Both the position numbers and the translations under genes were made by a program. Source: Candidatus Magasanikbacteria bacterium RIFOXYD2_FULL_41_14 (GTDB lineage Bacteria; Patescibacteriota; Patescibacteriia; Magasanikbacterales; GWA2-37-8). From it: a stretch of DNA of 44,233 nucleotides. The notes below the pieces were generated by a model, which saw nothing but the letters and a program-made list of their open reading frames with translations, had not been told where the DNA came from and searched no databases. Shown here in pieces: positions 25,631 through 43,582 of the stretch. How positions within the stretch are numbered: position 1 is the first letter of the stretch; every line of letters begins with the position of its first letter. Location of the stretch: the NCBI GenBank assembly GCA_001784475.1, contig MFRE01000022.1:1-44233 (forward strand), written 5' to 3'.

Positions 25631-25714
25631 GCCGGGGTGACGAAATTGGCAGACGTAACAGCCTTAGAAGCTGTCGGCCGCAAGGCCATGGAGGTTCAAG
25701 TCCTCTCCCCGGCA
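25631..25714 (+). tRNA. tRNA-Leu(TAG)
   Basis: GCCGGGG...CCTTAGAAG...CCCCGGC, long variable arm; loop CTTAGAA. Confidence 0.92.
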
Positions 25715-25715
25715 C

Positions 25716-25851
25716 AAGAAGCGACCCAATAGTTTGGGTCGCGACTGAGGACTTGAACGCCGGAACAATATCCGCTCGCGCGGACGTGAGGCGGTGGTTA
25801 GACAAAATTTTCTCAAAAATTTTAGTCGAAACCAAGTCCTCTCCCCGGCAC
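25716..25851 (+). other. tRNA-3'-end-associated structured element (Leu copy)
   Basis: Downstream of tRNA: hairpin, antisense T-arm gaggacttgaac (25747-25758), GC hairpin, AAAATTTT hairpin, then direct copy caagtcctctccccggcac (25833-25851). Confidence 0.65.
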
Positions 25852-39888: not shown

Positions 39889-40058
39889 GTGCCCCCGGAG
39901 AGGATCGGCTTTGACTCAAATTTTCTTCCAAAAATTTGGTCTAGCCACCGCCTCCCGATCGCGCGGCGTCAGTTCGGCCGCGCGATATCGGTCCGGCGTT
40001 CGATCCTCTCGGTCGCAACCAAATTAAAACAATCCACATAAGTGGATTGTTTTAATTT
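39889..40058 (-). other. tRNA-3'-end-associated structured element (Arg-TCG copy)
   Basis: minus strand: hairpin, gagaggatcgaacgccgg (antisense T-arm), GC hairpin, AAATTTT hairpin, direct copy gatcctctccgggggcac. Confidence 0.65.
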
Positions 40059-40059
40059 G

Positions 40060-40131
40060 TGCCCCCAGAGAGGATCGAACTCCCATCTTCAGGTTCGAAG
40101 CCTGATGTCCTATCCATTGAACGACGAGGGC
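40060..40131 (-). tRNA. tRNA-Arg(TCG)
   Basis: GCCCTCGTCGTTCAATGGATAGGACATCAGGCTTCGAACCTGAAGATGGGAGTTCGATCCTCTCTGGGGGCA; loop CTTCGAA. Confidence 0.9.
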
Positions 40132-43428: not shown

Positions 43429-43582
43429 AAAAATATCAGAATTTTCTGATATTTTTATCGGCACGAATCGAACGGGAAAGGGTGAAAACGGGAGTTTTCA
43501 CTCACGGAGGAAAGTCCACGAAAACCCGAAGGTTTTCGTGTGAGGAAAGAATAGACGACGTGAGATTTCGCGCCGAGGGCAC
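43429..43582 (+). other. tRNA-3'-end-associated structured element (Arg-CCG copy, different core)
   Basis: hairpin aaaaatatcagaattttctgatattttt, antisense T-arm cacgaatcgaacg, two strong hairpins, direct copy gatttcgcgccgagggcac (43563-43582). Confidence 0.65.

What the first reader, a model, noticed from the sequence alone, without database searches (positions are those of the whole stretch)
25716..25851. tRNA-Leu is followed by a ~136-nt structured element bounded by a second copy of its own 3' end
The tRNA 3' end (caagtcctctccccggcac, ending 25715) is repeated exactly at 25833-25851. Between the copies lie a spacer hairpin (gcgacccaatagtttgggtcgc), gaggacttgaac (exact antisense of the tRNA T-arm/T-loop), a CGCC/GGCG-enclosed hairpin (TCCGC-TCGC-GCGGA), a GGTT-aGAC-AAAATTTT hairpin closing with GTC/AACC, then the tRNA 3' copy. 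GAGGACTT pairs with AAGTCCTC to close the whole. It resembles an att-flanked integration, but is far too small for an island and has no ORF, so it may be a mini integrative element or a tRNA-linked ncRNA.
Basis: seen in the sequence. Interest (0 to 1): 0.85.

Follow-up and report, generated by a model that had tools for sequence, protein, structure and literature searches.

The report
tRNA-tailored structured RNA elements in Patescibacteria
Just downstream of many tRNA genes in Patescibacteria (tiny, mostly uncultured bacteria) sit small gene-less elements with a conserved RNA fold, each fitted with a forward and a reversed copy of the end of its own tRNA; they look like a new kind of mobile or tRNA-riding RNA element that no database I could search describes.

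Summary
The window, from a 1.1-Mb Patescibacteria genome, holds two elements of one family (T1), after tRNA-Leu(tag) and tRNA-Arg(tcg), and a third with an unrelated core (T2), after tRNA-Arg(ccg). A covariance model finds T1 in 11/27 family genomes and 38/389 sampled Patescibacteria, 1-10 copies each. Of 93 distinct copies, 80 lie downstream of a same-strand tRNA, across 30 isoacceptors. The fold (a three-way junction closed by the tRNA copy) is strongly supported by covariation, with G-U over A-C bias, and has no Rfam match. Each copy has a sense tail (tRNA position 57 to the 3' end) and an antisense arm to the T-stem, both cognate to the upstream tRNA. Near-identical cores sit at different tRNAs with different, matching arms. 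Where a tail has drifted, the arm still pairs with the tRNA (17 cases against 2), so both were probably set at insertion. Empty sites, orphans, exact tandem arrays and patchy presence indicate mobility. No tyrosine integrase, Y1 transposase or reverse transcriptase tracks presence. Best reading: non-autonomous mobile structured elements that acquire tRNA-specific docking arms on insertion; mechanism and possible RNA function unproven.

The parts
25631..25715 (+). tRNA-Leu(tag), intact host gene of element 1
   Evidence: ARAGORN; Rfam tRNA
25721..25742 (+). H0 hairpin (GCGACCCAA-TAGT-TTGGGTCGC), conserved hairpin just 5' of the P1 arm; a perfect 7-bp-or-longer stem in 63 of 93 copies and a looser hairpin in 88 of 93, centre usually CTGC or TAGT
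25747..25754 (+). P1 arm GAGGACTT, antisense to the T-stem/T-loop of the upstream tRNA-Leu; with GAAC, 25747-25758 is the exact antisense of GTTCAAGTCCTC
   Evidence: sequence; covariation of P1
25755..25833 (+). T1 core: P2 (25758-25761/25790-25793) with P3 hairpin, P4 arm (25796-25799/25830-25833), conserved motif GAGGCGGTGGTTAGAC 25788-25803
   Evidence: CM R1 hit 25747-25851, 82.5 bits
25834..25851 (+). tail: second copy of the tRNA-Leu 3' end (position 57 to the tRNA 3' end), pairs with the P1 arm
40059..40131 (-). tRNA-Arg(tcg), host gene of element 2
40020..40059 (-). H0 of element 2: 18-bp perfect palindrome (centre TTAT) starting at the tRNA 3' end
39889..40009 (-). element 2 (T1): P1 arm AGAGGATC, core, tail GATCCTCTCCGGGGGCAC (39889-39906)
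   Evidence: CM R1, 111.5 bits
43356..43428 (+). tRNA-Arg(ccg), host gene of element 3
43429..43461 (+). terminator-like hairpin between tRNA-Arg(ccg) and element 3
   Evidence: sequence
43462..43582 (+). element 3 (T2 core): antisense arm CACGAATCGAAC, core GGGAAAGGG...GAGGAAAG...CGAAAACCCGAAGGTTTTCG, tail TTCGCGCCGAGGGCAC copying the tRNA-Arg(ccg) 3' end

Best explanation
The feature is a member (T1) of an apparently undescribed class of small, gene-less, non-autonomous mobile elements of Patescibacteria that live behind tRNA genes. Anatomy, 5' to 3': intact tRNA; spacer, sometimes with the tRNA terminator and often (P0) an inverted copy of the tRNA acceptor 3' strand; H0 hairpin; arm antisense to the tRNA T-stem; structured core (T1: three-way junction with conserved internal loops; T2 and others elsewhere); tail that copies the tRNA from position 57 to its 3' end. 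Shown: the fold, cognate arms and tail, copies of one core at different tRNAs, tandem arrays, empty sites in related species, several core types in the same frame. Inferred: the core is the part that moves; on insertion at the T-loop/3' end of a tRNA gene it becomes flanked by a sense and an antisense copy of that tRNA's 3' end, so the tRNA stays functional. Arms and tail then drift. Movement needs trans factors, or replication/RNA template switching, since no mobility gene is encoded. The conserved loops and the sense-strand G-U bias suggest that the folded RNA is what is selected, possibly as a mimic of the tRNA acceptor/T-arm half.
For: Fold: 86% of cells paired vs 71% shuffled and 268 two-sided changes vs 84; 89% and 774 vs 213 on 93 copies; G-T 61 vs A-C 25. 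Linkage: 80/93 copies have a same-strand tRNA within 420 nt upstream, 30 isoacceptors; tail identity 15.8/18 to own tRNA vs 9.6 to others; arm-tail pairing 5.17/6 own vs 3.87. Mobility: nearest core is in the same genome for 20/50 vs 5.6 expected (max 16 in 2000 permutations), same isoacceptor for only 5; cores 99% identical at tRNA-Asn and tRNA-Pro of one genome. Arms differ 38% per site where cores differ 7%, yet fit their own tails. Where tail and tRNA differ, the arm fits the tRNA only in 17, the tail only in 2. Tail sharply bounded: starts at C56 or position 57, 21/57 end exactly at the tRNA end. Exact tandem units and mixed arrays; orphans; empty sites in related species. T2 shares flanks, including H0, with a different core. 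P0: own acceptor in the top 5% for 21/88, about 4 expected.
Against: No excision, circle, transcript or insertion event has been observed. Empty and filled sites come from different species, so insertion borders are inferred. No enzyme tracks presence. A terminator-like hairpin lies between tRNA and element in 23/75 copies, which limits co-transcription. P1 covariation could partly reflect selection rather than templated capture. Many loci were first found by an exact motif, which biases conservation around that motif, and the 0.9 core cut-off for paired comparison was chosen here. Arm mismatches with an intact tail (28 plus 13 G-U) mean the arm also drifts.
Confidence: 0.52

Rival explanations
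1. A host-beneficial, tRNA-linked non-coding RNA or cis-antisense regulator: the arm (antisense to tRNA positions 53-65) or the acceptor/T-arm mimic acts on maturation, stability or repair of its own tRNA.
For: Arms keep pairing with the tRNA rather than the tail (17 vs 2); strong fold conservation with fixed internal loops; tRNA-like P0/H0/P1 arrangement.
Against: Present in only 38/389 genomes and absent from sister species; a different tRNA set in each genome; orphans and tandem arrays; arms also drift; terminators between tRNA and element in some copies.
Confidence: 0.22
2. A miniature integrative element moved by a tyrosine recombinase (possibly the single Xer protein), with the tRNA 3' end as att site and circles as intermediates; orphans are secondary-site integrations using the last 6-8 nt of the tRNA.
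For: Direct repeats of the tRNA 3' end, sharp borders, exact tandem units, orphans that carry CTCCGC, CCCGC or CTCGGAAC at both ends.
Against: No dedicated integrase: G014, G015, G016, G022 and G024 have one Xer-like recombinase each, like most element-free genomes. Integrases do not explain the cognate antisense arm or 30 isoacceptor specificities.
Confidence: 0.12
3. An RNA-level element: a ribozyme-like RNA joins its 3' end to position 57 of pre-tRNAs by reverse splicing or ligation, guided by the arm, and the chimera is copied back into DNA.
For: Fixed junction at C56/R57, arm complementary to the joined tRNA segment, conserved internal loops, sense-strand G-U bias.
Against: No catalysis shown; no reverse transcriptase found in element-rich G014, G015, G024; arms are fitted to the target rather than guiding to mismatched targets.
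Confidence: 0.1
4. Degenerate tandem tRNA duplication.
For: Part of the tRNA is repeated downstream; the left flank can resemble an acceptor 5' strand.
Against: One conserved core fold recurs behind tRNAs of 30 isoacceptors and the repeat starts at the T-loop.
Confidence: 0.02

Closest known systems
tRNA-integrated genomic islands / integrative elements with tyrosine integrase
   Same: Flanked by a direct repeat of the tRNA 3' end from the T-loop; tRNA kept intact
   Different: About 105-150 nt, no gene, no integrase, an antisense tRNA copy on the left, 30 isoacceptors with cognate arms
MITEs and REP/BIME palindromic repeats
   Same: Short, non-autonomous, palindromic, multicopy
   Different: Confined almost wholly to tRNA 3' ends, target-derived arms, complex conserved three-way junction core; no Y1 transposase in most carriers
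Integron cassettes (attC)
   Same: Folded sites, stacked units of different content, exact tandem arrays
   Different: Each tRNA is its own site; no recombinase beyond one Xer-like protein in most element-rich genomes; no gene in the unit; attC features not searched formally
Viral tRNA-like structures and tmRNA tRNA-like domain
   Same: Acceptor/T-stem mimicry (P0/P1) ending in a tRNA 3' strand
   Different: The T-loop is replaced by a large core, and the 3' strand is copied from the neighbouring tRNA

Membership tests
Any Rfam family | score above the family's gathering threshold | tested here: not met
   Only rRNA and tRNA hits in the window; permissive scans of two elements give only weak chance matches
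Integrase-type genomic island or IME | direct repeat of the tRNA 3' end at both borders | tested here: met
Integrase-type genomic island or IME | integrase gene inside, or tracking presence in the genome | tested here: not met
   No gene in the unit; PF00589 count does not separate carriers from non-carriers in 27 family genomes
IS200/IS605 or REP/RAYT element | Y1 transposase in carrier genomes | tested here: not met
   Absent from G008, G013, G015, G016, G022, G024, G026
Retroelement with own or resident reverse transcriptase | RVT_1 protein in carrier genomes | tested here: not met
   None found in G013, G014, G015, G021, G024; a past or horizontally supplied enzyme is not excluded
Integron cassette | attC site with R/L boxes and IntI integrase | tested here: inconclusive
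   Only one Xer-like recombinase in most element-rich genomes; R/L boxes not searched formally
Self-cleaving or self-splicing ribozyme | in vitro cleavage or ligation | not testable with these tools
   Conserved internal loops only
Degenerate tRNA duplication | remains of D and anticodon arms in the copy | tested here: not met
   The copy starts at C56 or position 57, preceded by the conserved core

The most novel reading that the evidence does not exclude
A new class of RNA-centred mobile elements that, at each insertion behind a tRNA gene, copy a sense tail and an antisense arm from that tRNA, thereby building a tRNA acceptor/T-arm mimic around interchangeable structured cores.
Probability: 0.3. 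Interest if true: 0.92.

Novelty: categorically new. Interest (0 to 1): 0.8.

Why it matters
These elements make up a phylum-wide layer of structured, tRNA-specific sequence in Patescibacteria that I found in neither Rfam nor the papers searched. If they capture tRNA-specific arms on insertion, that is an unfamiliar way for a mobile element to adapt to its target without encoding a protein. If instead they act on their tRNA, they are a new kind of tRNA-linked RNA. Both readings can be tested, and the covariance model gives an immediate handle on metagenomes and metatranscriptomes.

Tried and rejected
Rfam, gathering and permissive: nothing. Viral contigs: 10 motif hits; none had a credible model match (best 13.3 bits) and none lay near a tRNA. 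Motif hits in non-Patescibacteria contigs: none near a tRNA; the one model hit below E = 0.01 (L076) looks like chance in coding-like sequence. Tyrosine integrase, Y1 transposase and reverse transcriptase as drivers: no correlation. A formal group I, T-box or RNase P relation was not pursued: T2 shares the string GGAGGAAAGTCC with RNase P CR-I (from memory), but no RNase P match appears in the window. Selection for arm-tail pairing alone was considered and judged weak, because drifted tails are rarely compensated. Papers: searches found no prior description; the search is limited to open PMC papers, and one search failed on a syntax error.

Full report
OBSERVATION. The 19-nt 3' end of tRNA-Leu(tag) (25697-25715) recurs exactly at 25833-25851. 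The copy noted at 39889-40058 is a true homologue on the minus strand behind tRNA-Arg(tcg). The genome is a 1.1-Mb Patescibacteria-type genome (named relatives are Magasanikbacteria, Uhrbacteria, Falkowbacteria and others).

A FAMILY. The 16-nt motif GAGGCGGTGGYTAGAC occurs in 9 of 27 family genomes with at most one mismatch and in 63 stretches among 85,488 species genomes. The hits that lie about 66-137 nt behind a same-strand tRNA are in Patescibacteria contigs, apart from contigs labelled only 'bacterium'; motif hits in other phyla are not near a tRNA and give no credible model match. Forty copies were aligned and a covariance model, R1, was built with a hand-drawn 38-bp structure. R1 finds the element in 11 of 27 family genomes and in 38 of 389 phylum genomes, 1-10 copies each. 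In genus g17 two species have seven copies each and two have none.

STRUCTURE. P1 is formed by the 5' arm and the T-stem strand of the tRNA copy. P2/P3 and P4 complete a three-way junction with conserved unpaired GAA, GGA/GA, AT, GT, A and GA. On 40 sequences 86% of cells pair (shuffles 71%), with 268 two-sided changes (84) and a covariation score of 0.435, against at most 0.17 for slid registers. On 93 distinct copies the figures are 89%, 774 vs 213 and 0.544. The second alignment was fitted to the model, so the first is the fairer test, although its structure was drawn by me on these sequences. G-T exceeds A-C 61 to 25 in well-paired positions, which points to folding of the tRNA-sense strand. 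The element is not in Rfam.

TAILORING TO THE tRNA. Of 93 distinct copies, 80 have a same-strand tRNA within 420 nt upstream, covering 30 isoacceptors. The tail matches its own tRNA in 15.8 of 18 positions, against 9.6 for other isoacceptors in the genome, and arm-tail pairing is 5.17 of 6 against 3.87. The tail begins at C56 or position 57 and in 21 of 57 cases ends exactly at the tRNA end. A hairpin H0, centre usually CTGC or TAGT, lies just before the arm: a perfect stem of at least 7 bp in 63 of 93 copies, a looser hairpin in 88 of 93. The segment before H0 is in many copies an inverted copy of the acceptor 3' strand (own acceptor in the top 5% for 21 of 88, about 4 expected). The predicted fold then resembles the acceptor/T-arm half of a tRNA with H0 as a side arm and the core in place of the T-loop.

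MOBILITY. The nearest core lies in the same genome for 20 of 50 family copies (5.6 expected by permutation, maximum 16 in 2000) and at the same isoacceptor for only 5. The tRNA-Asn and tRNA-Pro elements of G016 have cores 99% identical. For 51 pairs with cores at least 90% identical at different tRNAs (a cut-off I chose; the pairs are not independent), arms differ at 38% of sites and cores at 7%; arms fit their own tail 5.4 of 6 and the partner's 4.5. Of 22 arm-facing positions where the tail has drifted from the tRNA, the arm pairs with the tRNA only in 17 and with the tail only in 2. Arm changes opposite an intact tail are of similar or somewhat higher frequency (28 mismatches plus 13 G-U of 386 positions, many at the helix end). 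I read this as arm and tail both set from the resident tRNA at insertion and then drifting. Selection to stay antisense to the tRNA is the main alternative.

OTHER SIGNS. Exact tandem units occur at tRNA-Val (157 nt, two identical copies plus a partial one) and near-identical ones at tRNA-Trp. tRNA loci filled in some species are empty in relatives: pnp/tRNA-Leu and tRNA-Pro(tgg). Three orphans without a tRNA carry the last 5-8 nt of a tRNA at both ends. Different cores occupy the same frame: T2 behind tRNA-Arg(ccg) in this window, and five T2 pattern hits in this genome, one of them with the same H0 type as T1; a third type is stacked with T1 behind tRNA-Val and another tRNA.

MECHANISM. No cognate mobility gene was found. 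The most element-rich genomes have one Xer-like recombinase, like most non-carriers; most carriers lack Y1 transposase and several lack any reverse transcriptase match. My best explanation is a non-autonomous mobile structured element, with insertion aided in trans or by template switching between the universally similar T-arms. The step that creates the antisense arm is inferred, not shown. A host function of the RNA, a recombinase-driven mini-island and an RNA-level reverse-splicing element remain open.

LIMITS. Loci were partly ascertained by motif, genomes are mostly MAGs, filled and empty sites are from different species, no expression data exist here, and the literature search covers open PMC papers only. 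The label 'categorically new' rests on that limited search and on the absence of an Rfam match.

Noticed in passing
window 43429-43582: Third tRNA-linked element, behind tRNA-Arg(ccg), with an unrelated core (T2: GGGAAAGGG...GAGGAAAG...CGAAAACCCGAAGGTTTTCG); five T2 pattern hits in this genome, others in G014, G015 and G296.
   Followed up: partly
L066, L103 and L215: Further core types (e.g. GGAGGAGAAAT-hairpin-ATTTCGGGGGAAGAG) ending in the cognate tRNA 3' copy; in L066 and L103 stacked with T1 elements.
   Followed up: no
L055, upstream of 2801 (reverse strand): A tRNA gene that appears to be split by an intron resembling group I lies directly before a T1 element.
   Followed up: no
L149-L154 (G022 and G024): A 149-nt T1 subtype has an extra hairpin (CCCGCCCGGATGAATCCGTTCGGACGG) inserted between P2 and P4.
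   Followed up: no
L035 tail; L179 and L188 behind tRNA-Leu(tag): GC-rich palindromes of the type CCCGCCC...GGCGGGC interrupt tRNA 3'-end copies, probably a separate dispersed repeat.
   Followed up: no
L163 (reverse strand): A T2-like element behind tRNA-Lys seems fused to a T1 3' half at the tail sequence GAATCCCTG, as if cores recombined.
   Followed up: partly
L267 (G008, tRNA-Pro tgg): A solo spacer plus left half of H0 without core, possibly a remnant of a lost element.
   Followed up: no
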